64,000 nucleotides of DNA from positions 753,888 through 817,887 of the forward strand of contig NZ_HG315686.1 of the NCBI RefSeq assembly GCF_000455365.1. Direction: 5' to 3'. The translations under genes and the position numbers were made by a program. The notes under the pieces are model-generated. The model worked only from the letters and a program-made list of their open reading frames with translations. It ran no database searches and was not told where the DNA came from. Positions 1,969 to 27,685 of this stretch are shown here, in pieces (positions within the stretch are counted from its first letter, which is position 1; each line of letters opens with the position of its first letter). The stretch comes from Halopiger djelfimassiliensis (GTDB lineage Archaea; Halobacteriota; Halobacteria; Halobacteriales; Natrialbaceae).

Positions 1969-3150
1969 TCAGTCGTGATTGAATCCGGAATCAGGATCCT
2001 CCTCGGCATTCCTGAACTCGTCTTCGAAGCGTTCCCGTTCTTCAGTATCATCCGGTAGGTCGTAGTGGAGGTCTTGGACGCGAGGCGAGACATCGCACCG
2101 CTGATCGATAGCATCTGATGAAACACCCCGGTTCTTCTGGTCCGTAATGTACCCCGTCCGGATGTGATGGGGCGCCCGGCTACTCGGACACTTGTACGCA
2201 GAATTGTTCTTCTGTGCCGCCTCACACTCTTCTGGATCACGGTCGTGTGGACACCCTAACCCGACCGCACACGGTCGCGTCCACTTGTAAGCGATTTTCT
2301 GCAACATAGACGGGCTAATCCGTCCATCACCTTTCGTCAGCAGTGGTTTCCGCCCCTCGTCATCGGTTTCGTCTGGTCGTCGGTTCTCAAGATAGTCCTG
2401 AATGAATTCCGGGAGATCACCATAAAGCGTGACTTCCCGCTCGCTACTCTCGTTGTTCTTCAGCGGACTCGCCTCCTTATGCTCGTACTTGAGGATTCCC
2501 TCCTCGTAATCAAAGTGAGGTACATCACGGCCTCGTAACCCGTTCTTTCGAGGTCCAGACTGACACATCAACTCCATTGCGATGTGCTCCACATCAGCGT
2601 ACTCGTACTTGCGCAGATATTCCAGTGCTGCCTTCGCAATCTCGGGGTCTAACTTCTTTTCGTCTACGCCCTCCCCAGACTCATACTCGACTTCAGGAAT
2701 CTTGACGGATTTCTCGAAGCGAACTGGAGCCATCCGGTGCTCAATTAGGTACTGGATGAACTCCCGGAAGAGATACATATCGTCACGGAGGGTTGAATCC
2801 GATAGCGGCTCGTCGCGGTCTAGTGACTCGTTTTTCCGCCACTTATAGTATTGTTCGACGTCTTCGCTTGAGAGATCGTCAGTCGTTTCGATGCACGCTT
2901 CGCCTTCAAGATACGTCTGAAGATAGTTTAGCTTCCGCTCGTATTGTCCCGTCGAGTTGACCTCCTCCAGTTTCTCATCGCAGAAGTCGTCCAGAACATC
3001 TTCCATCGGTCGGGATTTCAGTGAGAGTTCGGGGAACGACTCGGACATCTCTTCCACGACCGTTGACGCAATCACTTCAATAAATTCTTCAGATGGATCT
3101 TCCGAAAGGTACTGTTTCAGAAACTCTTCATCGTTCAGGCGGTCCGTCAT
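1969..3150 (-). CDS. Tyrosine recombinase/integrase, SNJ2-type with Cys4 insert
   Basis: A 393-residue site-specific recombinase of the phage integrase family. An N-terminal SAM-like core-binding domain lies around residues 65-145. The catalytic domain shows Arg201 (or Arg206), the H-x-x-R box at His328-Arg331 and the nucleophile Tyr363. Just before the HxxR box is a Cys-rich insertion (Cys294, 300, 309, 321) shared with the integrases at 34.7 and 53.0 kb and probably binding zinc. It lies 40 bp downstream of a second recombinase on the same strand, so the two are probably cotranscribed. They may be the remnant of the element that delivered the neighbouring island, or a paired system like the multi-recombinase cassettes of other mobile elements; I see no matching attachment site. 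Confidence 0.85.
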   Translation of the reverse strand: MTDRLNDEEFLKQYLSEDPSEEFIEVIASTVVEEMSESFPELSLKSRPMEDVLDDFCDEKLEEVNSTGQYERKLNYLQTYLEGEACIETTDDLSSEDVEQYYKWRKNESLDRDEPLSDSTLRDDMYLFREFIQYLIEHRMAPVRFEKSVKIPEVEYESGEGVDEKKLDPEIAKAALEYLRKYEYADVEHIAMELMCQSGPRKNGLRGRDVPHFDYEEGILKYEHKEASPLKNNESSEREVTLYGDLPEFIQDYLENRRPDETDDEGRKPLLTKGDGRISPSMLQKIAYKWTRPCAVGLGCPHDRDPEECEAAQKNNSAYKCPSSRAPHHIRTGYITDQKNRGVSSDAIDQRCDVSPRVQDLHYDLPDDTEERERFEDEFRNAEEDPDSGFNHD

Positions 3151-3189: not shown

Positions 3190-4494
3190 TCACTCGAAGT
3201 CGTCTAGTGAACTATTGAAGCCGGTACTGTCCTCGGTATCCACGTAAGCGTCCTCCGGCAGAACTTCGCGGATCCGCCGCCGAAAGAAGATTCGGCGGTA
3301 TCGTTGCCGGCGCTCAGGTGTCAGGTAGTAGTCGCGGACTGATGATGGGTCCTTTGCGCCTTGTTCGTCGGCGATTTCAGCGGCCATCTCTAGGAGGTCA
3401 GTCTCGGCGTCTGCGAGGATGTTGTAGTAGAATGATCGGCCGTGTTTCGGGGTTGCAACGTTGCCGTCGATAGTAACATTAGCTCGCCGGCAGAGCGCTT
3501 TGAACTTCTTCCGTGCCTGTTTTGCACAAAGGAACGACCGGTCGGCCTTCGGACTCGGGAAAAGGTATCCGTTCCAATCTAGTTGACGCGCGCGGTTATC
3601 TAGAAGGCGAGCCAGCTCATTAAGTCCGAACATTAGGCTGACTTCTCCGCACCCATTCTTCCGGTCTTCATCTTCGAAGCTGATTACTGGCTCCATCGGT
3701 TTCAGATGAAGCTGGTCTACGTGTATTGCGGGCAGTTCCTTCGTACGAACCCCCCAGACACAGTATCCGATTACCAACATCCGTTCTTCGTCGGTCTGAG
3801 CAGTAATCCAGAGTCGCCGGACTTGGTTGTCGCTCAGCGGGGTCGGTTCGGCTTCCCGGTTCCACTGGAAGTCCTCTTCGATGTCCTTCATCGGGTCATA
3901 TTCAATGCGGTTTGACCGTTCGAGCCATTCGAAGAACCGATGGGCAGCGCGCAGATATTTGAAGGCAGACTCGTCGGAACTGAGGTCTTCTCGGAGGTCT
4001 TTCGCTACTTGCTTGAACGTATCGTAGAGTTTTCTTTGGCGGTCGGACTCATTCGCGTACGCTACAACCGCTGCGTCTCCGTGTTCCTCGCTAAATCGCC
4101 AGAGGACTCCGTTGATTCGAGATCGATTTGTCCGTTTTGTCGAGTCCGACCAGCCGCGACATTCAACTCGATCTTCGAGATAGGTTTTTGCGTGCCCGAT
4201 CGTTGCGACGTCATCGATACGCCATTGGTATCCACTATCGTCGCCCGATGAGGTGAGGAGAACGAAGAATTCTGGCGTGCCCATGTCGTGTTTTTCGCGG
4301 AGCACCCACCGAAGGTGGGAGTAGCCGTTGTTGGTTAACCATTGAACGGTTGGGTAGTCTCGGGGAGAGTTCGGATTTTGAGTCCTCCACTGTTCAAGGA
4401 TTTCTTCCCCGATGTCTTGGAGGGCGGACAGATCGTGACTCCAGTCCCGATATGTGTCCGTGTCGTCGGGGTCGTCTGATGAGCTGGTCGTCAT
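3190..4494 (-). CDS. Tyrosine recombinase, divergent
   Basis: A 434-residue recombinase. Residues 100-195 form a core-binding domain. The catalytic part has Arg250 in a VWGVRTKEL box, an H-x-R at His351-Arg353 in place of the usual HxxR, and Tyr389/Tyr390 near the C terminus. It lacks the Cys4 insertion of the other three recombinases here, so it belongs to a different subfamily. The ATG at 4494 is preceded by a GAGGAG ribosome-binding site and, further upstream, a TTATTT-type box A. It is first in a two-gene operon with the recombinase at 1969-3150. The altered HxR box could mean reduced activity. Confidence 0.8.
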   Translation of the reverse strand: MTTSSSDDPDDTDTYRDWSHDLSALQDIGEEILEQWRTQNPNSPRDYPTVQWLTNNGYSHLRWVLREKHDMGTPEFFVLLTSSGDDSGYQWRIDDVATIGHAKTYLEDRVECRGWSDSTKRTNRSRINGVLWRFSEEHGDAAVVAYANESDRQRKLYDTFKQVAKDLREDLSSDESAFKYLRAAHRFFEWLERSNRIEYDPMKDIEEDFQWNREAEPTPLSDNQVRRLWITAQTDEERMLVIGYCVWGVRTKELPAIHVDQLHLKPMEPVISFEDEDRKNGCGEVSLMFGLNELARLLDNRARQLDWNGYLFPSPKADRSFLCAKQARKKFKALCRRANVTIDGNVATPKHGRSFYYNILADAETDLLEMAAEIADEQGAKDPSSVRDYYLTPERRQRYRRIFFRRRIREVLPEDAYVDTEDSTGFNSSLDDFE

Positions 4495-5008: not shown

Positions 5009-5554
5009 CTAAATCGAATTCGCGTGTTGATGTATGGACTGGAATCTGTTCGATCCGTTGTCGCGCTCCTCAACTCGTAGTTCCCGATCAACATTCGGTA
5101 ACTCTCCCTGGTCATACTCCGCTGCGGGGTACACCGACACGCACGTCGTTTCTAATTCAGGAGACCAGCCTGCGTACACCGGCTTCAACACGACACTTCC
5201 CTGCGTCAGTCGGTCACACAGTGAGTCTGGGAGTTCAGAAATTATCGTCACCCGCGCACCACTGACGTCTCCAGTCTCTAACGCATCATCACTGACACCT
5301 GACAACCGACACGCGCCGACCAACTCTAACGTCGGTCGGTCTACCGTATTGTTTCCCAGGACTGCCTTGTTCTCCTCCTCGTGGTAATACCATGCAACCT
5401 TCGCACCCTGAGCCACATCCGTTCTGGAACTCTGGAACCCGATCTCGGTGGCGAACTCTGCTGGCAGCTGAAACTGGTTGTTTCTAGAGACCGCGCGTCG
5501 AACCTGGGATGGCAGTGGATCGTCAACCTGGGTCTGTTCTCGTGATTCTGTCAT
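5009..5554 (-). CDS. Hypothetical protein, possibly AbrB-like N terminus
   Basis: A 181-residue acidic protein. Residues 15-60 contain a stretch (RRAVSRNNQFQLP followed by a hydrophobic strand) resembling the swapped-hairpin DNA-binding part of AbrB/SpoVT-type regulators, but the match is weak. The rest is beta-rich with no catalytic motif. It stands alone, with more than 400 bp of non-coding DNA on both sides, between the recombinases and the leftward end of the Argonaute island. Function unknown. Confidence 0.5.
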   Translation of the reverse strand: MTESREQTQVDDPLPSQVRRAVSRNNQFQLPAEFATEIGFQSSRTDVAQGAKVAWYYHEEENKAVLGNNTVDRPTLELVGACRLSGVSDDALETGDVSGARVTIISELPDSLCDRLTQGSVVLKPVYAGWSPELETTCVSVYPAAEYDQGELPNVDRELRVEERDNGSNRFQSIHQHANSI

Positions 5555-5967: not shown

Positions 5968-6648
5968 TTATGGTGTTTTATATACAAGGAAATAGGAGTG
6001 GTTTTTGCGAGCATGGACTTGTCGATTCATCCCAACGACGGTCGGTTTCTCTTTCCGTACCTGGATGAACAAGTCTTTAGTGTAGAAATCAAGTTCCCGT
6101 TCGTAATAATTAGTCACCTGAATATGGGCGAGTTCCTGTGTGTTTGATGATACCTCGTCCATTATTTTGATAATCAGTGTCCCATTGTCCCGCAAGACCC
6201 GCTTCGCTTCTTTTCCACCTTCGAAATAAGTATGCAAGACTGCTCCATGGTACTTTCCCGATCCTTCATATTCACGCACGCCACTGTATGTATCTCTGAA
6301 TTTCCCATGTGATCCGTGCCCGGCCATATGGTCCTTGTTTCGTCTGTAGAAACCTTCGGCGTACGGAGGGTCAAGAACCATGCAGTCGAGACTATCGTCC
6401 TTAAGTGGAAGTGCGCGGCAATCACTGATCATAGAAAGATCATCCGTCTTCGGCGTGATATCGGCCGTAACTAGGTCTATATCACGACTTTCAAGATCGA
6501 TATTCTGCCAGAAGATACCTGTACCATGCGTAACATCCGCGATCCGCGCACCGTCTTCCACATGTAGATCGAGTATTTTCGGGAACAATTCGCTACTATC
6601 GGCTGTGTAGGCAGATAGAATTAGGTCGTCATCTGCTTCACTGTCCAT
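5968..6648 (-). CDS. SAM-dependent DNA methyltransferase-like protein (DPPY)
   Basis: A 226-residue protein with a Rossmann methyltransferase core. Residues 38-44 (DVTHGTG) fit the SAM-binding motif I, Asp63 lies on the next strand, and DPPY at 93-96 is the catalytic signature of N6-adenine/N4-cytosine amino-methyltransferases. It is small and has no target-recognition domain, so it may need a partner for specificity or act on something other than duplex DNA. Its start overlaps the helicase gene by 11 bases, making it the last gene of the RecB-helicase operon. In a defence setting it could mark self DNA; that is inference from position. Confidence 0.75.
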   Translation of the reverse strand: MDSEADDDLILSAYTADSSELFPKILDLHVEDGARIADVTHGTGIFWQNIDLESRDIDLVTADITPKTDDLSMISDCRALPLKDDSLDCMVLDPPYAEGFYRRNKDHMAGHGSHGKFRDTYSGVREYEGSGKYHGAVLHTYFEGGKEAKRVLRDNGTLIIKIMDEVSSNTQELAHIQVTNYYERELDFYTKDLFIQVRKEKPTVVGMNRQVHARKNHSYFLVYKTP

Positions 6649-8233
6649 TATCTACTTCGATGTCGCTCACTGTGAATACTTCTAACTTTTCGTCGGATGC
6701 CATTTCAGGTACTTCTCCGGTAAATTCACTGATCGTCCCGGTCCATGGGTCCTGATCGGCTTCTTTTTGGACGATGCTATACATCCGCTTCCAAACTCGG
6801 GCCGCCTCGTACTGATCGGAGTCAGAGGGAACGAAGTCGATAAGAGATCGAGGAACAACTAGTACGAGCTTTTTCTTCATCCGACTCATCGCCACATTCA
6901 GCCGATTCGGACTCAGGATGAAATCTGCTTCTCGACGTACGTAGTCTGGATCCGAAACTGTGCCAGAGACTACGATCATATCACGTTCCCCACCTTGGAA
7001 TCGTTCAACGGTGTCTACATCCGCGTTGTCGTAGTCCCGGAGAGCTCCTCGAAGGCGCCCACGCTGCGCATTATGTGGCGTTACTACTCCTACGTCCTCG
7101 CCAGGATCTACTGTCTGTACGAGTGAATCCACAATTCCAACCTCGTATGGATTACTTTGCTGCGATTCCTGTTCTTCATGAACGATTAGAACGAGCGGAT
7201 ACTTCGGATTCATCACTCTCCTGACGCCGCCCCGTTTAGCCCTGCGTACGTTGAGTGTGTAATTCTGCTCCGACCGGTATTTGATACGGTCCTGAGCATA
7301 GATCAAACGTCGTAGGAACTCCGCTACAACTTGATGACATCGATACGTTACTGCAAGTTTATCGATAGGGATATCTTGGAATTCCGGCACCTCGACCTCT
7401 TCCGGCGATTCATCCATTCCAAAGCTATCCTGGAAGGAGAAAAGACGGAAGAAATCCATTGAACTCAAATGAGGTGCGACTTCTTCGACTATCCGGCGAT
7501 CTTCGCGGTCCCAGTCGTGGGTTTGAACGGGAGGCATCTGGCGCTGATCTCCGGAAATCAATATCTGCGCGTCGGCTTCCGACGATGCTCCAGGAATGAG
7601 TATATTCGGCATCGGGAGCATGGACGCCTCGTCGACTGCCAGTAGGTCAAAACAGCTCTCGGTTCCGCTGTCCCATACTTCGTCAACAAACTTGTACGCA
7701 CCTGATGTGGTTGCGAAGACTAGGATACCACTCGCAGCACCGGTAAATGCACCGAGACTGGTCTGAGTTGTCAGATCTTGTCGCATTTGATCGAGATCAT
7801 CAGTATGGTAATTAATAAAGTCTGTTTCTTGGTAAAGGTCTTCATCAACCTCAATATCCCGCCCAAGTGCTCGAATAAGACGGAGATTATCGAGTGAACT
7901 CGACATACCAGTATCATCGGCGTGTTGTTTCCAGTGATGGAGATTTTCGTCAACCTCCTGCAATGCAGCGTTCACTGCCCTGTTCGAAGGAGCAACAACC
8001 ATTCCCCGCATCCGGTTTTGTGACGCGAGGAGTGCGTACGCCCGAGCAAGTAGGGTATACGATAGCGTCATCGTTTTCCCGGTCCCTGGCGGTCCTTGTA
8101 GCACCGCTATTCGGTCCTCGTACCGGCGGATGAACCGTTTTTGCTCATCATTTGGCGAGTATAGCTCGCTATCGTCAATCCAGTCTAAGAACTCTTCGGC
8201 GATATCCTGTGAGAACAGGTCGAGATCACTCAT
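6638..8233 (-). CDS. SF1 (Upf1/Dna2-like) DNA helicase
   Basis: A 531-residue superfamily 1 helicase. Walker A GPPGTGKT is at residues 47-54, an N-terminal Gln-containing motif lies just before it (NDEQKRF), Walker B is AVDEAS near 204, motif III is a GDQRQMPPV segment, and motif VI is NVAMSRMKKKL near the C terminus. These are hallmarks of the Upf1-like group that includes Dna2 and the helicase half of TM0106-type RecB fusions. It overlaps the upstream Fe-S nuclease gene by eight bases. The two together look like a split nuclease-helicase of the AddB/Dna2 kind, expected to unwind and degrade DNA ends. Confidence 0.85.
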   Translation of the reverse strand: MSDLDLFSQDIAEEFLDWIDDSELYSPNDEQKRFIRRYEDRIAVLQGPPGTGKTMTLSYTLLARAYALLASQNRMRGMVVAPSNRAVNAALQEVDENLHHWKQHADDTGMSSSLDNLRLIRALGRDIEVDEDLYQETDFINYHTDDLDQMRQDLTTQTSLGAFTGAASGILVFATTSGAYKFVDEVWDSGTESCFDLLAVDEASMLPMPNILIPGASSEADAQILISGDQRQMPPVQTHDWDREDRRIVEEVAPHLSSMDFFRLFSFQDSFGMDESPEEVEVPEFQDIPIDKLAVTYRCHQVVAEFLRRLIYAQDRIKYRSEQNYTLNVRRAKRGGVRRVMNPKYPLVLIVHEEQESQQSNPYEVGIVDSLVQTVDPGEDVGVVTPHNAQRGRLRGALRDYDNADVDTVERFQGGERDMIVVSGTVSDPDYVRREADFILSPNRLNVAMSRMKKKLVLVVPRSLIDFVPSDSDQYEAARVWKRMYSIVQKEADQDPWTGTISEFTGEVPEMASDEKLEVFTVSDIEVDNGQ

Positions 8234-11021
8234 ATTGTCCCTCCAGAAGACTCGCTACGGTTTGGTAAAACGGCCCAGGATTGTTCTCTAGGTCGTCGAA
8301 CACAGCTGCAGCGTGCTCAGCTGTCCAGTCCGTTGTCTGGGGGTCAAGAATGAACTTGTTGCCGACTCCGAAGTATATGTCGTAGTCACTATCGCTGGCT
8401 TCTGCTGGATCTGGTGTCCATGTACGATGGTTTCGGATGTAATCAAATTCAACGTGAGGACTGTTAGCGACGAAGAAGTCGCTATGGAAATCACTTAGAT
8501 GGAGTATGATTTCTCGGTCAGGAATATTAACATCGACGACTTCTACTGGGACACCACGCTCTATCTGCCGGGGGCTTCCCCATTCGTCCCGATGGATTCC
8601 ATCGTTGTAATCCCATTCTACCGCATTCGCTACCAATCGAGACCCTGACGTAGTTCCTTCGGATCCTTTTAGCCTACATGAATTCGCAACGCGATCTTCG
8701 TTAGCAAATTCTCGTCTATCATAGATCAATGTACCTCGTATGATTTGGTCGTCCCCATCTATTTCCGTTTCTTCAACTTTCACAATCGCCGATTTCCCCG
8801 TTCTGACCCGTTCACGTGGGGATTTTGCGTAGTGGCGGAGAGTATCTTGTCTATTTGAGAAGTGCTCAAGGTTGACGTAGTCTTCGGATGCTTTCCGGAG
8901 GGTTGACTGTCCGAGATCGAACTCCGGAATATCGGGGAGTGGAATCGGTGATTTACCCATAAATGGGTTGTGGTAATAAGATAAGCTATGTTCAATGTGT
9001 TCAAGTGCTTGGCAAATTTTCTCCCCGAGAAATCCGATATCTTCCGGTATGATGCGGGTGTTCCTCTTCTCAGAATCGTGCCACTTATATGAGCGAATCT
9101 CCCACTTCTGTCGGTTTGATGTTGCCCAATCCGTGTCAAGTTTCCCGACTGCGGCCCAGATGTACTCTAGAGGTAATTGATTATCGAAGCGAGCACGCGC
9201 TGGATACCAACCATCTTCGTCTTCCACGTGAGGATCGATTACCATCTCCCCGTCATCGTTTCTCTGATAAGTAACCCGATAGTTGAAGAAGTTCCGATTA
9301 AAGACACTCCAAAGATCAATCTCAGTACCATCTTCACGTTCACCCGTCCATTCATCTGTCTCAAAATATGGGATTTCGTCACCACATCCACAGCGACAGT
9401 CTTCATTGTACGCTTGGTCCAAAATTGGGAGTAGGCCAGTGGACGTAAATTGAAGCGAGAATCGATCTTGGAGTTCATCCTGTAGGACCGATACCATTGG
9501 CTGGTCGATCGCTTGACGCAGGCCAAGCAAATCCCGGATTGCGCCGAAGCTTTCCGCGTCCCACTCTCCAATATGTCGTTTCACACCATCCATCAGGGCA
9601 TCTCTCTCCATCCGAGAGAAGAAATACAGATGGATCGTAGCCTCATCGTCACTGCCAGATATAGCATCAATAGCCCTGAAAAGTTGCTCAAAGAAATCAG
9701 CCAACAGTTCCCCCTCGACCTCAATCTGCTCTTCTTTGTCGTCTGGGAGCCTTTCCGAGACGGTTGAGAAAGATAGTGAATTGATTGGGGAGTTAGTGCG
9801 TGCGACCCGACCAGCGAGCATGGCGATGCTGTCACGCATGTAGTCTTCGCGGACATAGATATAACACCGAATCATGCTCCCACCTTGGTAGTCCATATAT
9901 TGCTGCTGACTAGGCGTTGGATCGTCTTCAGGAAGTGTACCCTGGCCTGATCCCTGCAATGGCCGTATCCATGGTTGTGTAGCGGCTTCAGGATGCTTGT
10001 CCTGTTGGTCTTCATCAATAATACCGCCTAAAACGGCCTGTGCTCGTTGGACTATTTCATCAAGACCGTCACCAATCACCGGTTCGTCAAGTAATTCTTG
10101 GACCTTCTCTTCATTTCGAGATGTTAACTCCCTGTAGTTGTCAGGTTGAGGACTATCTGGCACCTCTTTGAGACGAGCTAGTTGCGTTATAGTTTCGATA
10201 TCGTGATTATTGAGTACGCGCTGTTCTCCTTCGGTGAGCCCGAGAAGAGCAAGGTTTCGGGTCTCAATAGCATGACTGAAACAATCCTCACTATAGAGAC
10301 AGTAATTGCACTTGCCGCTAAGACGGTAGTTGACAGAATCATCTTCGGCAATTTGGTCAGCTTTCCCCCCTTCACGAAGCATCCGACGCACGTCCCCTTC
10401 AACAACACTTAGGTCGGGGACGGTGGGAAAGGAATCAGGATCATTGCCGTAGAATTCCTCGGACTCCCGATGTACGATGCCAGCATTGATGGCTGGATCG
10501 AAACCACTGACTTGCAGGTGACGCCGAAGCAAAAGGCTATAAATGGCTGCTTGGATCTGATGATACGGTTGGTCCTCGGTTGAAGACTTAATCTCTAAGA
10601 TATGCGCGTTGAGCCGATCGTCCTCGTACCAAAATGCAATAAGGTCGGCTTGGCCCTTGATCGGCCATGCGTCGATACGGCCCCAAAGAGAGGGTTGATA
10701 GACTAATATTAGTCCCTCTGTTTCTATTGCCTTTTCAGCTATATTAGAGATATTTCGTTGAATAACTGGGAGAGTGTCTGAAAACTCGTCGGGTAGATCC
10801 CACTCATCTCGGGCCTCCGCATTGATGAACTCTGCAGCTTCTTCACGAAGGCCCTCAAGTACATCCTCCTCGAACTGATTTCCGGCCTCTGATAGGAAAA
10901 CACCTAATTCATCCTGTGCACCGTCATCTGGTCCCACTGACTGCTTCAGGTATCGGGGACACTCTTCGAACCCCACCCAAAGACCGACATTAGAGGCATT
11001 TATTGGGTCTCGATCAGACAC
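8226..11021 (-). CDS. Cas4/AddB-like Fe-S PD-(D/E)XK nuclease, large
   Basis: A 931-residue protein starting with GTG. Residues 1-250 form a RecB-family nuclease: Asp126, Glu143-x-Lys145 and the Gln155...Tyr161 box make the active site, and Cys21 with Cys238, Cys241 and Cys247 would hold a 4Fe-4S cluster as in Cas4, AddB and Dna2. A helix-hairpin-helix-like segment follows near 260-300. The remaining 600 residues are unfamiliar; a Cys cluster (CRCGCGDE, around residue 535) may bind metal. Single TM0106-type proteins combine this nuclease, a hairpin, an RNase H fold and an SF1 helicase; here the helicase is the next gene. A TATA-like box about 30 bp upstream suggests its own promoter. Confidence 0.8.
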   Translation of the reverse strand: MSDRDPINASNVGLWVGFEECPRYLKQSVGPDDGAQDELGVFLSEAGNQFEEDVLEGLREEAAEFINAEARDEWDLPDEFSDTLPVIQRNISNIAEKAIETEGLILVYQPSLWGRIDAWPIKGQADLIAFWYEDDRLNAHILEIKSSTEDQPYHQIQAAIYSLLLRRHLQVSGFDPAINAGIVHRESEEFYGNDPDSFPTVPDLSVVEGDVRRMLREGGKADQIAEDDSVNYRLSGKCNYCLYSEDCFSHAIETRNLALLGLTEGEQRVLNNHDIETITQLARLKEVPDSPQPDNYRELTSRNEEKVQELLDEPVIGDGLDEIVQRAQAVLGGIIDEDQQDKHPEAATQPWIRPLQGSGQGTLPEDDPTPSQQQYMDYQGGSMIRCYIYVREDYMRDSIAMLAGRVARTNSPINSLSFSTVSERLPDDKEEQIEVEGELLADFFEQLFRAIDAISGSDDEATIHLYFFSRMERDALMDGVKRHIGEWDAESFGAIRDLLGLRQAIDQPMVSVLQDELQDRFSLQFTSTGLLPILDQAYNEDCRCGCGDEIPYFETDEWTGEREDGTEIDLWSVFNRNFFNYRVTYQRNDDGEMVIDPHVEDEDGWYPARARFDNQLPLEYIWAAVGKLDTDWATSNRQKWEIRSYKWHDSEKRNTRIIPEDIGFLGEKICQALEHIEHSLSYYHNPFMGKSPIPLPDIPEFDLGQSTLRKASEDYVNLEHFSNRQDTLRHYAKSPRERVRTGKSAIVKVEETEIDGDDQIIRGTLIYDRREFANEDRVANSCRLKGSEGTTSGSRLVANAVEWDYNDGIHRDEWGSPRQIERGVPVEVVDVNIPDREIILHLSDFHSDFFVANSPHVEFDYIRNHRTWTPDPAEASDSDYDIYFGVGNKFILDPQTTDWTAEHAAAVFDDLENNPGPFYQTVASLLEGQYE

Positions 11022-11043: not shown

Positions 11044-11055
11044 CTACATAAAACT
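11044..11055 (-). promoter_or_regulatory. Box A (TATA) for the nuclease-helicase-methylase operon
   Basis: Read on the minus strand, GTTTTATGTAG lies 25-33 bp upstream of the GTG at 11021, the usual place for an archaeal TATA element driving a leaderless or short-leader transcript. It sits in the only long gap (11022-11382) inside the leftward gene series. Confidence 0.45.
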
Positions 11056-11382: not shown

Positions 11383-12399
11383 TTATAGGTCGAACAACGG
11401 TTCAACATCGGAAATAGCATAACGATATATCATTTCATATAATGCTCGATATTTAGGGCTACCTTTCGTGCTCGTGAGAAATTCTTGTCCAAAATACGGG
11501 ATATCGCTTCCACTTATAACAGGATCATCTAGTGGGCGATCTTCATCGAAGTTCCCAAGTTCTTTCTGGGTACGTCGCCAATCTGTAGGATCTATATTGT
11601 GATTATAGATATCCCAGTAGGTTTCAGGGACATCTGCGACGGTTTCGAGTGAGAGTCCTGGGCGCTTGAGATCATTATGAGTCAGTTGTGAGAAAAGCTT
11701 CTCGACCCGCTGCACCGTCTTTCCATCCCGCTGTTTGGTTGCTTGGCTAGCTAGTTCTGCTCGCGCTTGGATATGGCCCAGATCGAATTCGCCATTATAA
11801 GTGAGGAGTGTAGTTGCCTCTCGCGTTTCTAACCAATCACAGAGCGATTCAATAAGGTCTAATTCAGCTGCCGTTGATGAGCCTTCACGAAAGAGAACAT
11901 CGGTTTCGATTGGGCCGTCTGAGGACGGTTGATATCCAACACCGATGCACAATAATTCAAGGTGATTAGGATTATCTAAATCAAGTTCACCTTCCTCGAC
12001 AGTCTGGATCGTTTCGATATCCAGTGCCAGATTCCCATCAGCGCCGTCAGCCGTAGAGCTTTCATTTTCGTTCTCTTCAACATTGGAGAGGAGGTCTTTT
12101 GGTGGGTCAATAGGTTCAATACTCAGATCTCCAAAGTTCGGACGCAGTTCTTTTTGGCCTTGGTAGATGTTACCCGATGCACTTTGAAATAAGTACCATT
12201 GGTTTTCGACGAGATCATATTCTGGGCTTTGGTCAAATAGCGTGAGCTGGACGTCATTACCGTTGATATCTGTGAGAAGTACTCGTTCCCGAACGTTATT
12301 TCCCTCGTAGATGGCATTAACTTTCACAACTCTACTGATATCTTCATTCTGTTCTATATCATCGGCTACTGAAGTGGGTAATTCCATATCATGTTTCAA
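11383..12399 (-). CDS. OB-fold plus DEDD 3'-5' exonuclease
   Basis: A 338-residue protein with two parts. Residues 20-95 read as an OB-fold (VKVNAIYEG..., DVQLTLFD, ending near a YQGQKEL strand) of the RPA/RepA kind. Residues 122-338 are an RNase H-like exonuclease: Asp127 and Glu129 (LALDIET), Asn202/Asp206 (TYNGEFD) and Asp331 (AISD) supply the four acidic ligands. This matches DnaQ/PolB-type or YprB-like 3'-5' exonucleases. ATGs at 12399 and 12387 are both possible starts. The gene follows the MrfA-like helicase by 91 bp. The OB domain resembles the N-terminal domain of the Argonaute four genes upstream, which suggests both grip the same single-stranded DNA. Confidence 0.8.
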   Translation of the reverse strand: MKHDMELPTSVADDIEQNEDISRVVKVNAIYEGNNVRERVLLTDINGNDVQLTLFDQSPEYDLVENQWYLFQSASGNIYQGQKELRPNFGDLSIEPIDPPKDLLSNVEENENESSTADGADGNLALDIETIQTVEEGELDLDNPNHLELLCIGVGYQPSSDGPIETDVLFREGSSTAAELDLIESLCDWLETREATTLLTYNGEFDLGHIQARAELASQATKQRDGKTVQRVEKLFSQLTHNDLKRPGLSLETVADVPETYWDIYNHNIDPTDWRRTQKELGNFDEDRPLDDPVISGSDIPYFGQEFLTSTKGSPKYRALYEMIYRYAISDVEPLFDL

Positions 12400-12490
12400 T
12401 TACCGGCACGATAAAAACGGTCTGGATAGCAGTAGAAGCTCACGTGATGACTGTGGTACTGGTGTTATTAGCAGTGATCTACGCCCTTCA

Positions 12491-20971: not shown

Positions 20972-22085
20972 TGAATTCGGCCTCCTGGTTGATTCGCTGT
21001 TGGATGAGTGGTGCCATCGTCTCGGTCACTCGGTAGAATGCGCGTCGTCCCTCGCGGTCACGTTCGACGAATCCTGATTCACTAAGTTCTCTGAGGTGAT
21101 AGGATATCGTCGATTTGTCACGGTGGAGTTCATCGACCAGTGTACCTGGTTGAACACCGCGATCGTTCGGCAGTTGGAGTATCTGTTTCAGGACGGCAAG
21201 CTTGGAATCCGAGAGTTCCTGTACGCGTGTGCTTGCGTTGGCGAGGTGGAGTCGTTTGGCAGCGGCGTTCGTGGCTGCGACGTCCCCTGGCTCCAGTTCT
21301 TTTCGAAATGCTTCTTGAAGCGACTCTACCGCGAGGATGTGGATTAGCCGTGGGATACCTTCGCTAAGTGCGTGAATTCGCTCCGCAGTTTCTGCGGGAA
21401 GCGAGAAGCCATCCTCTGATAGTACATCGAAGAGAACGCTGAGGGTTTCTTGTGTATCCTCGCGTGGGAATGCGTCGAGGTGGATTTCTTTTGCCGGAGG
21501 AAGGACGTCATGGATTCGATCCCGATTTACAGTCCACCGTTCCGGCGTCCATGTCGTCACGAAGAGCCCGCTATCGACTGCTTGTCGGAATTCAGTGAGC
21601 GATGTCCGGATTCGTTTATCGAGGCCACAATCGTCGATGCAGACGACTGGGGTCTCGAATCCGGCCAGTTCGTTAGCGAACTGATCAAGGAGGAATCCGT
21701 CGTCAACCTTCTTCCCGGGCTCGGTTGCGTCGATCAGCTTCGTATCGATGTCCTCGGGGAGTTCCGTGAGAAACGAGACGACGGTATGTAGCAACTGGGT
21801 CTTCCCGATTCCGGAGGGTCCGACAACGGGAATGTGGAAGATGTCCTGTTGACGAGTAACAAAACCTGCGTACTCAGCGATCTCGTCAAGCTCGTCTTCT
21901 TGGTTGGCCGCTTTTTCAGGGTGGTTCCGGAAGTAGTCCGTGAGTTGTTCACGGCTTACTTGTTCTGGTTGGAACCCGTGATCCGTCAACCAGACGTCGT
22001 AGCTCCCGACGTGCCCCTGTTGACCGCGTTCGAAAGCTTCTCGGAAGCGGTTTTTCTTGTCTTCGTCATCGTTAGGCGGTTCCAT
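20964..22085 (-). CDS. AAA+ ATPase with C-terminal winged helix
   Basis: About 373 residues. I take the ATG at 22085 (MEPPNDDED); a TTG three codons upstream (22094) is less likely. The P-loop is GPSGIGKTQ, Walker B is VVCIDDCG, and a Cdc6/ExeA-like lid region follows. The C terminus is a winged-helix domain of the type seen in haloarchaeal regulators (DKSTISYHLRELSESGFV), followed by a wing. Such AAA-wHTH proteins act as origin/repeat-binding ATPases or regulators. As first gene of the leftward operon, directly beside the shared control region, it may control both operons or load other factors on DNA. Confidence 0.75.
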   Translation of the reverse strand: MEPPNDDEDKKNRFREAFERGQQGHVGSYDVWLTDHGFQPEQVSREQLTDYFRNHPEKAANQEDELDEIAEYAGFVTRQQDIFHIPVVGPSGIGKTQLLHTVVSFLTELPEDIDTKLIDATEPGKKVDDGFLLDQFANELAGFETPVVCIDDCGLDKRIRTSLTEFRQAVDSGLFVTTWTPERWTVNRDRIHDVLPPAKEIHLDAFPREDTQETLSVLFDVLSEDGFSLPAETAERIHALSEGIPRLIHILAVESLQEAFRKELEPGDVAATNAAAKRLHLANASTRVQELSDSKLAVLKQILQLPNDRGVQPGTLVDELHRDKSTISYHLRELSESGFVERDREGRRAFYRVTETMAPLIQQRINQEAEFNG

Positions 22086-22166
22086 CGGTTCCAACTCCTC
22101 AAACTATCCAACTTATCCAAAACTATTAAAACCTGTTGGTTACACATACTGTGTGTGACATCCACT
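22086..22166. promoter_or_regulatory. Divergent promoter region of the two island operons
   Basis: These 81 bp separate the ATPase start (22085, leftward) from the Mre11 start (22167, rightward). They contain TATTAAAA at 22124-22131 (box A-like, usable in both directions), two direct TATCCAA repeats at 22105-22111 and 22114-22120, and an inverted repeat ACACA-TAC-TGTGT at 22142-22154 just upstream of mre11. These are plausible operators for the winged-helix ATPase or another repressor, coordinating the Argonaute and Mre11-HerA halves. Confidence 0.5.
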
Positions 22167-23687
22167 ATGTTGACGCTTACTCACATCGCGGACACCCACC
22201 TCGGCCACCGCCAGTACGGGTTGAAACAGCGCGAGGACGACATGGCGTCAACCACGCGAGCAGCATTCAATGAAATGATCGAGGACCGTGGAACCGACGC
22301 GATCCTCGTGCCAGGCGACCTGTTCCACTCGCGGGATCTCCGCCCGAAGGTACTGCATCAGACGGAGCAGGAGTTAGCGCGAGTGCCGGACAACGTTCCA
22401 CTGTTGGTATCGCGCGGGAACCACGACGAAAACCTGACACCGCGCGACGTGACGTGGTTGAATTACCTTCATCAGCGCGGACACGTCGTGTTCTTGAAGG
22501 CGGATCTATCCGCCGACACCGATACTGCGCAGTTCGAACCGTACGATCCCGACGATCCGGGCGAGTACGCAGGGTTTTACGACATAGATATCGACAAGTT
22601 GGACGGCCCGGTCCGCGTGTTCGGGTTGCAGTGGCGCGGGGCGAAGACCGGACAGGCTCTCCGGCAGGTGGCGAACGGGATTCAAGAGACGAACGAGACA
22701 CACGGTGAACCGGCGTTTACCGTGCTGTTAGCGCATTTCGGGATCGAGGACGAAGTACCGACGCTTGGCGGAACGGTGACGCACGGCGAGTTGCGAGACG
22801 TCAAGGAAGTCGTGGACTATCTCGCACTCGGACACATTCACAAGCGGTACGAGGCCGGTGGATGGATCTACAACCCTGGCTCGCCCGAGGCGCATAACAC
22901 ACGCGAGGGCCGGGACGACTGGGAGCACGGGTATTATTCGGTAACGCTGACCTCCGACGCATCGGGGGGCGATGTGTCGGTCGGATTCGAGGCGACGCAC
23001 CACGAGACGAAGCGCCGACCGTACTACCGGATGGAATTTGACGTGACACCCTACGAGTCGCCCGGAGAGCTGGAATCGGCGTTCCGTGAGCACGTGCAAA
23101 GCGAGCGATCGGATGTTGAGGAATACTGCGGGAAGTCGGCATACACAGCGCAGGGGGAGCCGCGGTCACCGATCCTCGATCTGCGGTTTACCGGGACGTT
23201 GCAGTTCAGTCGAGGGGACTTTCGAACCGATGAACTCGCGTCGTTCGCGGAGAAGGAGTGCGACGCGTTGTACGTCCAAGTGAACACTGGAATCCGAACA
23301 GCGAACGTCCAGCAGCTTATCTCCGAGATCGATGAGGGTGAGGTGTTCAAAGACGGCCAGTTAAACACGGCGGCGTTGGAAGATCAGGTGTTCGAGACGA
23401 TCGCACAGGAGTCGATGTACTCAGAGAAAGCCTCGGACGTCGCTGACGTCCTGGGGAATGCGCATCAGATGGCACAGGCCAAAGAAGCAGCTGAGGATAT
23501 CCGCGACACGGTGAGTTCGGCGCGCCGCGACCTGTTCCCAGAACTCGTCGACGATGTGGTCCTCGATATCGAGGAGGACCCGTTCGACGATGGTGACGGC
23601 GACATTGAAACGACAACATCGGAAACCGCGGGAGATGAGGAATCAGATTCCGAGACTGACGAGACTGCGGAGGTGGTGAGCGAATGA
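22167..23687 (+). CDS. mre11: Mre11 nuclease
   Basis: A 506-residue protein starting at the ATG at 22167; an open frame extends upstream but the conserved start MLTLTHIADTHLG fits the family. The calcineurin-type phosphoesterase motifs are present: Asp9/His11, GDLFH with Asp51, GNHDE with Asn85/His86, a later AHFG and GHIH. It is a Mn-dependent 3'-5' exo/endonuclease that with Rad50 processes DNA ends. The last 60 residues are a very acidic tail. Its stop overlaps the rad50 start (ATGA). Haloarchaea usually have a chromosomal mre11-rad50; this is probably an additional, island-specific copy. Confidence 0.93.
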   Translation: MLTLTHIADTHLGHRQYGLKQREDDMASTTRAAFNEMIEDRGTDAILVPGDLFHSRDLRPKVLHQTEQELARVPDNVPLLVSRGNHDENLTPRDVTWLNYLHQRGHVVFLKADLSADTDTAQFEPYDPDDPGEYAGFYDIDIDKLDGPVRVFGLQWRGAKTGQALRQVANGIQETNETHGEPAFTVLLAHFGIEDEVPTLGGTVTHGELRDVKEVVDYLALGHIHKRYEAGGWIYNPGSPEAHNTREGRDDWEHGYYSVTLTSDASGGDVSVGFEATHHETKRRPYYRMEFDVTPYESPGELESAFREHVQSERSDVEEYCGKSAYTAQGEPRSPILDLRFTGTLQFSRGDFRTDELASFAEKECDALYVQVNTGIRTANVQQLISEIDEGEVFKDGQLNTAALEDQVFETIAQESMYSEKASDVADVLGNAHQMAQAKEAAEDIRDTVSSARRDLFPELVDDVVLDIEEDPFDDGDGDIETTTSETAGDEESDSETDETAEVVSE

Positions 23688-26395
23688 GGATCACGAAAGT
23701 CGCACTGGAGGACATCAAGTCCTACGAGGGCCGGACAGAGGTACCGATCGAAGGCGGCGTCACGGCGATTCTCGGCGAGAACGGGGCCGGGAAATCGACG
23801 ATCCAGGAGGCGATTGGGTTCGCGTTGTTCGACTCGCTCCCGTTCAATAACAAGGACTTCGTGCGGGAGGGCGCAAGTTCGGGAACCGTCGAGATCACGT
23901 TCGACATAGAAACGGAGAGCGGTACGGAGCGGTTCCGAGTAACGCGGTCGATTGGCCGGTCAAACTACGGTGTCCATCGGTACGGCGCTGAGAGCGACAA
24001 GTGGGTGGATCAGGATATCGACTCGAAAACGGAGCTGATGCGGTGGTTACGCGCCCGGTTCGACGTCGAGGACAACGACGAACTGCAGAGCCTCTGGGAG
24101 TCGTGCATTGGGGTGCCGCAGACACGGTTCCTCTCTGACTTCTCCCAGACGGCGAAGAATCGAAAAGAGACATTCGACGCGTTACTGAATCTCGACGCGT
24201 ACGAGGAGTCGTGGGAGGCGCTCAAGGACGTCCCGGACGCGATCGAGAAGCAACAGCAGGACCTCCGGAGCGACATCGATACGCTCACCGGGGAGGTACA
24301 GAGTCTGCCGGACGAGCGTAGAGAAGCGGAATCGTTGGCTGAAGAAGTAGAGGAGTTGGAGACACGCATCGAGCGGAAATCGAACGAGTTGTCGGAGAAA
24401 AAGACGGAGTACGAGGAGCTAGAGGCCGTCCAAGAGGAGATCGATCGTCTCGGGGATGAGGTCGAGTCGCTGCAGCAGAAGATCGAGGCGAGCGAGAGCA
24501 AGCTAGATACAGCCGAACAGGAACTCGAAGCCGCCAAGGAAGCACAGGAGAAGTGCGAAGCGAACCGAGAGGGATATCAGCGGTACAAGCAAGCGCAGGA
24601 CCGGCTGGACGAGCTAGAGGAGCGAGAGGAAAAACGAGACGCGCTCCGTGAACGGAAGAACGATAAAGAGCAAGAGGTCTCGACCATCGAGGTCGAGGTT
24701 GAGCAGTTGGAAGACAATCTGGCGGAGTTAGAAGCGGCCAAGGAGACGCTAGATGAACTAGAAGACGAGAAGGAGCGATACGAAGAACTCGACGAGTGCA
24801 TCGAGTCGCTGAAACAGCGCGAGGACGAGGTCGAGAAGTTACAGCGCAACATCGAGGAACTGACGACAGAAATCGAGGAGAAGGAAGACGAGATCGAGGA
24901 GAAGGAGGAGACGATAGCAGAGATCGAAGCCGAGTGGGAGGAGACGACCGATCCCGAGGAGATCGCGGGTGAGATTAATGAGAAAAAAGCTCAGCGGAAG
25001 CAGCTGAAGCGAGAGCGCAACCAGCTCGACGAGCAGTTAGAGCGATTACGTGACACGGACATCGACGCGCCGTGCCCGACGTGTGACCGACCGTTGTCCG
25101 AGAAACACCGGTCCGATGCGATCGAACAGCACGAAACACGGATCGAGGAAATCAAAGAGGAACGCGATCGGCTCGACGAGGAAATCAGCGATCTACGCGA
25201 CCGCCGCCAGGAGGCGCAGGAGGTCAAACAGCGGTTCGACAAGGTCTCGATGTATCGGGAGCAGATCGAGTCGCTGGAGAACGAGATCGAAGACCTCCAG
25301 GGGGAGAAGGAAGAGACCGCGTCCGAGTTAGAAGAACTGAAATCAGATCTGGAAGAACTCCCCGAACTCGAAGCGCAACGCGACGAGTTAGAAGAAGCGT
25401 ACGACGAGTACCAAACGGCCGAGTTCCGGGTGCGGGAGAACAGCGACGTGCCCGAGCAGTTGGAAGAGATGCAGGAAGAACTAGCAGAAGAACAGTCGGT
25501 CCTCGAAGAGATCAAAGACGACCTGGCGGAGTTCGAGGAGTTAGACGAGAAGATCGACGACGCCGAGGCGACGATGGAAGAGACAGAATCGGCATATCAG
25601 ACGTACATGCAGTACGAGAAGCAGGCTTCGCAGGTAGAGGACCGACGAGAGACCGTTGAAGACCTGGAGAGCGAGCTTGAGGAACTCGAAGCGGAACGCG
25701 ACGAAACGGAAGCAGAACTGAAGGAGTCCAAAGAGTCGTTTGACGAAGAACGGTTCGAGACGCTTGAAGCGGAGATCGAAGAGCTCAACGGCGAGATCCA
25801 GCGTGCAAGGGGAACGCTCGAAGAAAAGGAGAAGAACCTGAAGAACACACGCGAGGAGATCAAGCGGTTAGAGACGAAACTGGAGGAGCGACAAGAGAAG
25901 ATCCAGCAGTTGAAGGAATTGAAAGCGGATCACAAGTTCGCTACGTGGGTTCGGAAGAATGTGCGGGAAGCCGGGCCGAAGATGCGTGAGATCATTACGG
26001 ATCAGATCGGCGCGCGAGCGAACGAGCTGTTCCGGTCGATCCGTGGTGTGTCTGCAGAGACGCTAGAGTGGACAAGCGACTACCAGATCGTCGTACACGA
26101 TGCGAACGTGCGGAAGTCGTTCTCGACGCTGAGCGGCGGGGAGAAGATGGCAGCCGCGCTCGCAGTACGGCTCGCCATCCTTGAACAGTTAGCGTCGGTC
26201 GGTGTGGCGTTCCTCGACGAGCCGACGGCGAACCTGGATCGACAGAAAAAGCGGAATCTCGTGACGCAGTTGAAGCAACTGGACAGCTTCGAGCAGCTCA
26301 CGGTCATTAGTCACGACCAGACGTTCGATTCGATGACGGACTACACAGTCACTGTCGAGAAGCCCCGGCAGACGTCGGAGGTGACCATCAATTAA
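23684..26395 (+). CDS. rad50: Rad50 SMC-like ATPase
   Basis: A 903-residue protein with the SMC layout. The N-terminal Walker A is GENGAGKST at 31-39, a long Glu/Lys-rich coiled coil runs to both sides of the zinc hook CPTC (Cys464, Cys467), and the C-terminal lobe has the LSGGEK signature near residue 817 and Walker B FLDEPTANLD near 845. Length and hook position are normal for archaeal Rad50. It partners Mre11 encoded just upstream; its TAA stop overlaps the nurA ATG (TAATG), so the MR complex and the HerA-NurA module are translationally linked. Confidence 0.95.
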   Translation: MRITKVALEDIKSYEGRTEVPIEGGVTAILGENGAGKSTIQEAIGFALFDSLPFNNKDFVREGASSGTVEITFDIETESGTERFRVTRSIGRSNYGVHRYGAESDKWVDQDIDSKTELMRWLRARFDVEDNDELQSLWESCIGVPQTRFLSDFSQTAKNRKETFDALLNLDAYEESWEALKDVPDAIEKQQQDLRSDIDTLTGEVQSLPDERREAESLAEEVEELETRIERKSNELSEKKTEYEELEAVQEEIDRLGDEVESLQQKIEASESKLDTAEQELEAAKEAQEKCEANREGYQRYKQAQDRLDELEEREEKRDALRERKNDKEQEVSTIEVEVEQLEDNLAELEAAKETLDELEDEKERYEELDECIESLKQREDEVEKLQRNIEELTTEIEEKEDEIEEKEETIAEIEAEWEETTDPEEIAGEINEKKAQRKQLKRERNQLDEQLERLRDTDIDAPCPTCDRPLSEKHRSDAIEQHETRIEEIKEERDRLDEEISDLRDRRQEAQEVKQRFDKVSMYREQIESLENEIEDLQGEKEETASELEELKSDLEELPELEAQRDELEEAYDEYQTAEFRVRENSDVPEQLEEMQEELAEEQSVLEEIKDDLAEFEELDEKIDDAEATMEETESAYQTYMQYEKQASQVEDRRETVEDLESELEELEAERDETEAELKESKESFDEERFETLEAEIEELNGEIQRARGTLEEKEKNLKNTREEIKRLETKLEERQEKIQQLKELKADHKFATWVRKNVREAGPKMREIITDQIGARANELFRSIRGVSAETLEWTSDYQIVVHDANVRKSFSTLSGGEKMAAALAVRLAILEQLASVGVAFLDEPTANLDRQKKRNLVTQLKQLDSFEQLTVISHDQTFDSMTDYTVTVEKPRQTSEVTIN

Positions 26396-27660
26396 TGCCA
26401 ATCGACAAGCACGGGGTCGCTGCCGAGCTGGAGTCCAACGTTGAGACGATCGAAGCGTATCTGGAAGACGATACGGGGATTGTCGAGCGGTATCAGGACG
26501 CGTTCCAGCGTCTCCCTAAAGAATGGACGAGCGAGGAGATCCGTGAGGCATTGGAGGACGCGTCATATCCGGGTGCGTACCCGACCGACGAGTTCAATGA
26601 CGTGAGCAGCATCGTCGTTCCGCACGCTGAGAGCGACGGATGGGAGAACCACGAGAATGTCAACGAGTGGGCTCGTGAAATCCTCCGCGATGTTCCGGTC
26701 ATGGCCGTAGACGGGTCACAACTCCCGCCGACAACAGAGTTCAACGTGCCGCTGGCGTACGTGCAGTCTGCATGTGCGGTTAATTACCATCATGCTGACG
26801 GGCGTCTCGATCGAGACGTCGAAGGGCGGCTGTTGACACCCGACGAGATCACGCGGGAATCACAGGAGGGAGACTACCGGTTCGTGGATTCGCAACTCGT
26901 CGGCCATCATCGGTTCGAACACGAAGGGGCGCTGCTCATCGAGCAGCTCGTGGAGCTGGCGGAGGCCCGCGACGCCGGTGATGTTGCCCATACGCCAGTC
27001 GTGTTCTACGACGGTCCCTTGATCGCGTCGTTTGCGAACCCGTTGAAGCCGGAAACGCGTGAGCGGTACATCTCGACGCTGAGTCGGGTGATCGCCGCGA
27101 GCCAGCATCACGAGATTCCACTCGTCGGGTACGTCGCGGGATCGAGCGCGACTGAACTGGTGAAGATGACGCGGCTCCTATTGCGCGATGAGTTCGAAAC
27201 CGACCGCGTCATTCCGGACGCGCATGTCCTGACCGAACTCATGAGCCCGTGGGGCGACACGACGGTCCCGTTCATCTCGAAGCGTGACGGGAGCGTTGAC
27301 GCGCTGCAGGCGACCTACGAGGGCGAGCGGTACGAGTTCCGTGACGACATCCTGTTCTCGTACCTGAACGTGCCACCCGGTGCGGGTCTCGATCGGATCG
27401 AGTTCCCTGGGTGGCTATGCCGCAGCGACGGGCCCGATGGGTACGACTCGATGTACGAGTACACCGTCGAGATCGTGCGCGCAGAGGCCGGTGTCGGTCG
27501 CGGGTACCCAGAAATAATCCAGCAGGCCGACAGCGACGCCGTGCTTGACCATCAGGACCGGCAGCAGTTCCACCGGATCGTCCAGCGATGGGCCGAGTCG
27601 AACGACGTGCCGGTCGAATGGAACGTGAAGGCCTTGAGCAAGGAACTCCGCCGACGATGA
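26395..27660 (+). CDS. nurA: NurA 5'-3' nuclease
   Basis: A 421-residue protein with the NurA domain. The catalytic motif AVDGSQ is centred on Asp106, and an acidic C-terminal half contains further conserved-looking acidic patches. NurA is a ring-shaped 5'-3' ssDNA/dsDNA nuclease that works inside the HerA translocase to resect ends prepared by Mre11-Rad50. The start overlaps the rad50 stop by one base. It is followed after 25 bp by a HAS-barrel protein and HerA, the standard archaeal order being mre11-rad50-herA-nurA in various permutations. Confidence 0.88.
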   Translation: MPIDKHGVAAELESNVETIEAYLEDDTGIVERYQDAFQRLPKEWTSEEIREALEDASYPGAYPTDEFNDVSSIVVPHAESDGWENHENVNEWAREILRDVPVMAVDGSQLPPTTEFNVPLAYVQSACAVNYHHADGRLDRDVEGRLLTPDEITRESQEGDYRFVDSQLVGHHRFEHEGALLIEQLVELAEARDAGDVAHTPVVFYDGPLIASFANPLKPETRERYISTLSRVIAASQHHEIPLVGYVAGSSATELVKMTRLLLRDEFETDRVIPDAHVLTELMSPWGDTTVPFISKRDGSVDALQATYEGERYEFRDDILFSYLNVPPGAGLDRIEFPGWLCRSDGPDGYDSMYEYTVEIVRAEAGVGRGYPEIIQQADSDAVLDHQDRQQFHRIVQRWAESNDVPVEWNVKALSKELRRR

Positions 27661-27685
27661 CAACCTACCATTACAGGAGGAATAC

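What the first reader, a model, noticed from the sequence alone, without database searches (positions are those of the whole stretch)
5968..11021. Split Fe-S RecB nuclease, SF1 helicase and DPPY methyltransferase as a sub-operon
A 931-aa Cas4/AddB-like nuclease, a Upf1-like helicase and a methyltransferase-like protein overlap each other and have their own box A. It resembles a TM0106-type fusion broken into two genes plus a possible self-marking enzyme, which could be a stand-alone defence module docked to the Argonaute island.
Basis: partly seen in the sequence, partly recalled or inferred. Interest (0 to 1): 0.6.

Follow-up and report, generated by a model that had tools for sequence, protein, structure and literature searches.

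The report
Split DNA2-like nuclease–helicase with methyltransferase
A salt-loving archaeon carries a mobile three-gene cassette in which a DNA-cutting enzyme, a DNA-unwinding enzyme and a DNA-marking enzyme travel together, most likely a restriction-type defence in which the mark protects the cell's own DNA; it sits beside an Argonaute island here, but is a separate module.

Summary
The three genes are real and intact: an Fe-S PD-(D/E)XK nuclease (8226-11021), an SF1 Upf1/DNA2-type helicase (6638-8233) and a DPPY amino-methyltransferase (5968-6648), with 8- and 11-bp overlaps. Among 392 haloarchaeal genomes, 41 encode the nuclease, mostly as fused proteins of 1450-1700 aa. The window and four other genomes form one fully supported split clade, and all five carry the methyltransferase beside it; none of the 36 others do. 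An 8.56-kb block holding the trio and a recombinase is 99.4% identical between two families, so it moves as a cassette. The Argonaute island is conserved in four genomes without the trio attached, and that homology stops at 12490: the trio is a neighbour, not a component. The methyltransferase belongs to the M.NruI/M.Sbo13I family (TCGCGA) but lacks the family's restriction enzyme. Fused relatives recurrently lie beside 7-deazaguanine-modification genes, and the nearest characterised enzyme (Geobacillus Bad) lies beside a methyltransferase. Best reading: a restriction-modification-like cassette with a motor-nuclease effector. Against a simple version: TCGCGA is not depleted in trio genomes, unlike two of three R-M genomes tested. 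Activity, motif and function are untested.

The parts
8226..11021 (-). Fe-S ('iron-staple') PD-(D/E)XK nuclease with a ~640-aa central/C-terminal region of unknown fold; N-terminal partner of the split DNA2/Bad-like enzyme
   Evidence: PDDEXK_1 E 1.9e-6; Cas4 models E 4e-5; conserved C21/C238/C241/C247 and E51/D126/K145/Q157/Y161
6638..8233 (-). SF1 helicase of Upf1/SMUBP2/DNA2 type; C-terminal partner
   Evidence: AAA_12 E 1.5e-22; PDB SMUBP-2 E 2e-17, UPF1 E 3e-10, DNA2 E 9e-7; helicase motifs conserved
5968..6648 (-). DNA amino-methyltransferase of the M.NruI/M.Sbo13I family (DPPY; no separate target-recognition domain)
   Evidence: pSB13 methyltransferase 48.6% identical over 97%; N6_N4_Mtase; tree and alignment; AlphaFold pLDDT 77.5 with methyltransferase-like matches
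11048..11053 (-). box A-like TTTTAT, ~30 nt before the nuclease GTG
   Evidence: sequence; similar element at a similar place in L032, L033, L034
3190..4494 (-). tyrosine recombinase (434 aa); orthologue (62%) near the trio in G270
1969..3150 (-). tyrosine recombinase (393 aa); orthologues (78-80%) near the trio in G270 and G216
5009..5554 (-). 181-aa ORF of unknown function; 54% relative near the trio and recombinases in G270

Best explanation
The trio is a mobile restriction-modification-like defence cassette. The methyltransferase marks host DNA at a short motif, most likely TCGCGA or a derivative (N6mA or N4mC). The Fe-S nuclease and the SF1 helicase act as two subunits of a DNA2/Bad-like motor-nuclease that loads on DNA ends, flaps or ss-ds junctions, unwinds 5'-3' and cuts DNA lacking the mark. 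It arose by one fission from the fused nuclease-helicases found in haloarchaea, some of which appear to serve other DNA-modification systems. Shown here: genes, intact motifs, monophyletic split clade, invariant linkage, transfer as a block, methyltransferase family, separability from the Ago island. Inferred: complex formation, degradation, methylation and its motif, methylation-dependent self-recognition, antiviral role.
For: Split clade monophyletic at 100% local support. Methyltransferase beside the helicase in 5/5 split-clade genomes down to 47% nuclease identity, in 0/36 others. 8557-bp block with trio and recombinase 99.36% identical between G270 (family f1) and G216 (family f5), clean edges. 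Methyltransferase from a bona fide R-M family (PMC2890505); haloarchaeal relatives convergent with R.Sbo13I-like genes (E 8e-26 to 1e-51), which trio loci lack. Ten of 46 nuclease-helicase loci have TGT/DpdA/QueC/QueD/QueE genes within 7 kb, against 1 of 23 control loci; seven of eight fused-type genomes tested have an extra ~415-aa TGT paralogue, within 5 kb of the nuclease-helicase in four, while trio genomes G172 and G270 do not. Geobacillus Bad has the same layout, nuclease and 5'-3' helicase activity, and neighbours a DNA methyltransferase in all Geobacilli examined; its authors proposed a new restriction enzyme (PMC7430649). No nuclease relative found in viral contigs, whereas the methyltransferase is common there.
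Against: TCGCGA is not depleted in the window's genome (397/486 in 400 kb, ratio 0.82) or other trio genomes (0.73-0.99), while R-M genomes G130 and G537 show 0.03 and 0.15 (G067 0.72); so no imprint of TCGCGA restriction, or another motif. In G364 the methyltransferase is convergent rather than co-transcribed, and its grouping with the other trio methyltransferases is unresolved (AU p 0.43). The five cases are one clade with one near-identical pair, so the statistics are not independent. The other four trio methyltransferases sit on a long branch (0.97), so motif transfer is uncertain. The control comparison for modification genes is small (10/46 vs 1/23), and 31 of 46 loci have no recognised DNA-modification gene nearby. 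No experiment.
Confidence: 0.55

Rival explanations
1. The nuclease-helicase is a self-sufficient defence or DNA-end-processing engine that recognises ends, flaps or replication intermediates; the methyltransferase is a separate protective or regulatory passenger (for example against host NruI-like restriction), kept because the block moves as a mobile element.
For: Fused relatives mostly lack any linked methyltransferase; related methyltransferases occur in many viral contigs, only 4 with an R gene; no TCGCGA imprint in trio genomes; some haloarchaeal genomes show strong TCGCGA depletion, so such restriction exists there; recombinases flank the trio.
Against: The methyltransferase overlaps the helicase gene or lies 5-8 bp from it in all five loci, which a passenger would not need; linkage persists to 47% identity; DNA-modification genes recur beside other members.
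Confidence: 0.25
2. The trio is an accessory of the Argonaute island, supplying helicase and nuclease for Ago-guided DNA destruction.
For: Adjacent and same-strand in the window; fused relatives sit next to Ago in G256 (L037) and a Salinigranum rubrum plasmid (L073) and in an Ago-type operon in G307 (L042); pAgo neighbourhoods often hold nucleases and helicases (PMC6299218).
Against: The island is conserved in G097, G142, G273 and G216 with homology ending at 12490; trio genomes G172 and G364 have no Ago hit, and G216/G270 have one 40-64 kb away; genome-level co-occurrence is marginal (9 seen, 5.1 expected, p 0.05); base composition differs between trio (0.46-0.51 GC) and island (0.58-0.59).
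Confidence: 0.08
3. Modification-dependent (type IV-like) restriction: the nuclease-helicase attacks DNA carrying a foreign mark and the methyltransferase has another role.
For: Proximity of fused relatives to 7-deazaguanine genes would fit attack or protection; TCGCGA is not depleted in trio genomes.
Against: Type IV enzymes do not need a cognate methyltransferase; here it is invariantly linked.
Confidence: 0.06
4. Chance neighbours in a recombinase-rich accessory region.
For: The surroundings are mobile.
Against: Same three genes in five genomes of three families.
Confidence: 0.03

Closest known systems
Bad, bacterial DNA2-like helicase-nuclease (Geobacillus stearothermophilus, PMC7430649)
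   Same: N-terminal iron-staple nuclease, central region of unknown fold, C-terminal SF1B helicase; neighbours a DNA methyltransferase; proposed restriction role
   Different: Bad is one polypeptide with a type III Mod-like partner (GCCAT); here nuclease and helicase are separate genes and the partner is of NruI type. Direct homology could not be tested: Bad's sequence was not on hand
Eukaryotic DNA2
   Same: Fe-S RecB nuclease plus SF1 Upf1-like helicase; helicase similar to DNA2 by sequence
   Different: One polypeptide, essential replication/repair enzyme, lacks such a central region (PMC7430649), no methyltransferase partner
NruI and Sbo13I R-M systems (TCGCGA; PMC2890505)
   Same: Methyltransferase 48.6% identical to that of pSB13, with conserved DPPY and IVa-like segment
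   Different: No R.NruI/R.Sbo13I homologue in trio loci; nuclease-helicase in its place
UvrD-Cas4 fusions beside type III R-M or Dcm-Vsr (PMC5704561)
   Same: RecB-type nuclease with SF1 helicase tied to DNA-modification genes
   Different: UvrD-type (3'-5') helicase rather than Upf1/DNA2 type; other methyltransferases
Dpd 7-deazaguanine DNA modification/restriction
   Same: Fused relatives lie beside TGT/DpdA, QueC/D/E and once a DpdJ-like gene
   Different: No deazaguanine genes in the trio loci; a methyltransferase instead
TIGR03491 (TM0106 family RecB-like nuclease)
   Same: Partial match at residues 231-286 (E 5e-7)
   Different: 29 bits against a cut-off of 97; no RNase H-like domain detected

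Membership tests
DNA2/Bad-like helicase-nuclease | PD-(D/E)XK catalytic motifs in the nuclease | tested here: met
   E51, D126, K145, Q157, Y161 invariant in 46 homologues
DNA2/Bad-like helicase-nuclease | four Fe-S cysteines spanning the nuclease domain | tested here: met
   C21, C238, C241, C247 present here and in 44-45 of 46 homologues
DNA2/Bad-like helicase-nuclease | SF1B Upf1-type helicase motifs | tested here: met
   motifs conserved; SMUBP2/UPF1/DNA2 by sequence
DNA2/Bad-like helicase-nuclease | nuclease and helicase in one polypeptide | tested here: not met
   two genes here; fused in most homologues
DNA2/Bad-like helicase-nuclease | sequence homology of the central region to Bad | not testable with these tools
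   Bad sequence not on hand; nuclease model unusable (pLDDT 28.6)
M.NruI/M.Sbo13I methyltransferases | sequence similarity and gamma-like motif order with DPPY and a conserved IVa segment | tested here: met
   48.6% over 97%; alignment and tree; motifs per PMC2890505
M.NruI/M.Sbo13I methyltransferases | methylates TCGCGA | not testable with these tools
   no methylome; TCGCGA not depleted in trio genomes
Type II R-M (NruI type) | cognate R.NruI/R.Sbo13I-type endonuclease nearby | tested here: not met
   absent at all five trio loci; present at L096, L097, L098, L114, L115
TM0106 family (TIGR03491) | score above curated cut-off over the whole model | tested here: not met
   29 vs 97.45 bits, 55 of 462 positions
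Dpd system | DpdA/TGT beside the effector | tested here: not met
   none in trio loci; G172 and G270 hold a single TGT hit only
Argonaute island | conserved linkage with Ago | tested here: not met
   island homology ends at 12490 in four genomes

The most novel reading that the evidence does not exclude
DNA2/Bad-like motor-nucleases are an interchangeable restriction engine of archaea that is paired with different chemical self-marks: NruI-type amino-methylation in the split trio and 7-deazaguanine in several fused lineages. This would be a class of restriction system in which DNA is unwound and degraded together, with the mark setting self from non-self.
Probability: 0.35. Interest if true: 0.8.

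Novelty: new variant of a known kind. Interest (0 to 1): 0.58.

Why it matters
The cellular role of prokaryotic DNA2-like enzymes is an open question; a restriction role was proposed in 2020 from one neighbour gene in Geobacillus. An independent archaeal lineage, with a different methyltransferase and recurrent proximity of fused relatives to DNA-modification genes, makes that idea directly testable in haloarchaea. It also separates this module from the Argonaute island to which it appears to belong.

Tried and rejected
TM0106 membership: sub-threshold partial hit. A degenerate RNase H domain in the central region: suspected by eye, not supported by Pfam on six members or by hhalign against the RNase_H_2 protein of the Ago island. 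TCGCGA depletion: the window itself is depleted (11/32), which looked like restriction, but 400 kb of the same genome is not (0.82), so I do not use it as support. Methyltransferase fold search: methyltransferase fold only, top hits include tRNA as well as DNA enzymes, not decisive. Genome-collection scan with the helicase found only H. katesii. Viral scans for the nuclease found none, with few patterns; a 24-sequence alignment could not be used. A megablast of a 60-bp stretch against E. coli genomes was uninformative. Terminal repeats at the 8.56-kb block: none of 12 bp or more.

Full report
OBSERVATION. The nuclease gene overlaps the helicase gene by 8 bp, and the helicase gene overlaps the methyltransferase gene by 11 bp. 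The nuclease has a PD-(D/E)XK domain, the helicase SF1 AAA_11/AAA_12 domains, the methyltransferase an N6_N4_Mtase domain. In an alignment of 46 homologues the Fe-S cysteines C21, C238, C241 and C247, the catalytic residues E51, D126, K145, Q157 and Y161, and the helicase motifs are kept. By sequence the helicase resembles SMUBP-2, UPF1 and DNA2. A TTTTAT element lies about 30 nt before the nuclease GTG, and comparable elements precede three relatives.

SPLIT AND LINKAGE. Of 392 haloarchaeal genomes, 41 have a nuclease relative. Most are single ORFs of 1450-1700 aa holding nuclease and helicase. The window and G172, G270, G216 and G364 have two genes, broken in the linker before the Walker A motif. 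These five form one clade with full local support in a FastTree tree. Each has the methyltransferase beside the helicase: downstream on the same strand in four, convergent in G364. None of the other 36 nuclease genomes has it linked. Fisher's p is 8e-6, but this counts related genomes. Other fissions exist without a methyltransferase: L119, L070 (the G120 gene has an in-frame TAG), and breaks inside the helicase in L061, L062 and L064. Searching further members of families f4, f5, f6 and f17 gave no further trio.

MOBILITY. G270 and G216 belong to different families yet share 8557 bp at 99.36% identity, with sharp edges and no terminal repeat of 12 bp or more. The block holds the trio, three small ORFs and a tyrosine recombinase. 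The window has two tyrosine recombinases downstream (1969-3150, 3190-4494) whose orthologues lie near the trio in G270 (80% and 62%) and, for the first, G216 (78%).

ARGONAUTE. The block Ago, 515-aa RNase H-like protein and SF2 helicase is conserved at 84-85% nucleotide identity in G097, G142, G273 and G216; similarity ends at 12490/12491, at the end of the SF2 helicase gene. G216 has both island and trio, about 40 kb apart. G172 and G364 have no Ago hit. GC is 0.46-0.51 in the trio and 0.58-0.59 in the island. Fused relatives do adjoin Ago in G256 and a Salinigranum rubrum plasmid, and an Ago-type operon in G307, so a looser association is possible; genome-level co-occurrence is 9 against 5.1 expected, p 0.05.

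METHYLTRANSFERASE. It is 48.6% identical over 97% to the methyltransferase on Shigella boydii plasmid pSB13. I take this to be M.Sbo13I because the organism, plasmid name and gene layout agree with the M.NruI/M.Sbo13I paper (PMC2890505); that match of record to enzyme is my inference. M.NruI is reported as probably N6mA and M.Sbo13I as probably N4mC, both at TCGCGA. Haloarchaeal relatives at L096, L097, L098, L114 and L115 lie convergent with a homologue of the pSB13 neighbour gene (R-type, E 8e-26 to 1e-51); trio loci lack it. Four trio sequences form a long, fully supported branch; G364's position is unresolved (AU p 0.43). Related methyltransferases are frequent in viral contigs (52 loci), four with the R gene.

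MOTIF TEST. In 400 kb of the window's genome TCGCGA is at 0.82 of the Markov expectation; other trio genomes are at 0.73-0.99. R-M genomes G130 and G537 are at 0.03 and 0.15, but G067 at 0.72, and G097, which has no hit to this methyltransferase, is at 0.12. Depletion is therefore a loose marker, but the trio leaves no TCGCGA imprint. The 64-kb window is itself depleted (11/32), possibly from its own history as an acquired region.

WIDER FAMILY. Ten of 46 nuclease-helicase loci have TGT, DpdA, QueC, QueD or QueE genes within 7 kb, against one of 23 control loci. An extra ~415-aa TGT paralogue, besides the housekeeping copy, was found in seven of eight fused-type genomes tested, within 5 kb of the nuclease-helicase in four; G172 and G270 have only one TGT hit. 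Another group (seven loci) has a four-gene operon with a ~1578-aa SF2 helicase and two proteins without Pfam or PADLOC match. Members are recurrently placed with DNA-modification genes, but 31 of the 46 loci have no recognised one nearby, so this is a tendency, not a rule.

MECHANISM AND PRECEDENT. Geobacillus Bad has an Fe-S nuclease, a central region of unknown fold and an SF1B helicase, with ssDNA endonuclease, 5'-3' translocase and helicase activity; it neighbours a methyltransferase in all Geobacilli its authors examined, and they suggested a new class of restriction enzyme (PMC7430649). By analogy I propose that the split pair acts as this engine and that the methyltransferase marks self. 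Conserved catalytic motifs and gene linkage are shown; complex formation, activity, motif and role are inferred.

VERDICT. A real, conserved, mobile module and a new variant of the DNA2/Bad-like nuclease-helicase kind, with a partner from a known R-M family. Its place beside the Argonaute island is not conserved. Confidence in the R-M-like reading is about 0.55.

Noticed in passing
L036, L038, L040, L046, L053, L054, L067, L070: Fused nuclease-helicase genes close to QueC/QueD/QueE, TGT/DpdA-like and GHKL-ATPase genes, suggesting 7-deazaguanine DNA-modification systems in haloarchaea with this effector.
   Followed up: partly
L045, L047, L048, L055, L056, L118, L119: Conserved operon: nuclease-helicase, ~1578-aa SF2 helicase with MZB domain, ~305-aa and ~285-aa proteins without Pfam or PADLOC match.
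   Followed up: partly
L100-L105, L116: M.NruI-like methyltransferases with an N-terminal ParB-like domain (455-535 aa), a sister group of the trio methyltransferases; the domain was confirmed by Pfam for L100 and seen by alignment in the rest.
   Followed up: partly
L096, L097, L098, L114, L115; viral L130, L132, L143, L148: Apparent NruI/Sbo13I-type R-M pairs in haloarchaea and in four viral contigs.
   Followed up: partly
L235-L238 (G097): TCGCGA at 0.12 of expectation in a genome with no hit to this methyltransferase.
   Followed up: no
window genome, L183-L202: GGCGCC at 0.06 and GGGCCC at 0.31 of expectation in 400 kb, suggesting other restriction pressure.
   Followed up: no
window 11383-12399: 338-aa RNase H/exonuclease-like protein between trio and Ago island; relatives (~250 aa) occur beside both Ago islands and nuclease-helicase genes, and part of its N-terminus resembles an Ago N-terminal region.
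   Followed up: partly
window 21834-29502: By eye, Mre11, Rad50, NurA-like and a short HerA-like ORF on the other strand, upstream of the Ago gene.
   Followed up: no
L073, Salinigranum rubrum plasmid NZ_CP026313.1: Piwi protein, fused nuclease-helicase, metallophosphoesterase and AAA ATPase (DSB-repair annotation) in a row.
   Followed up: no
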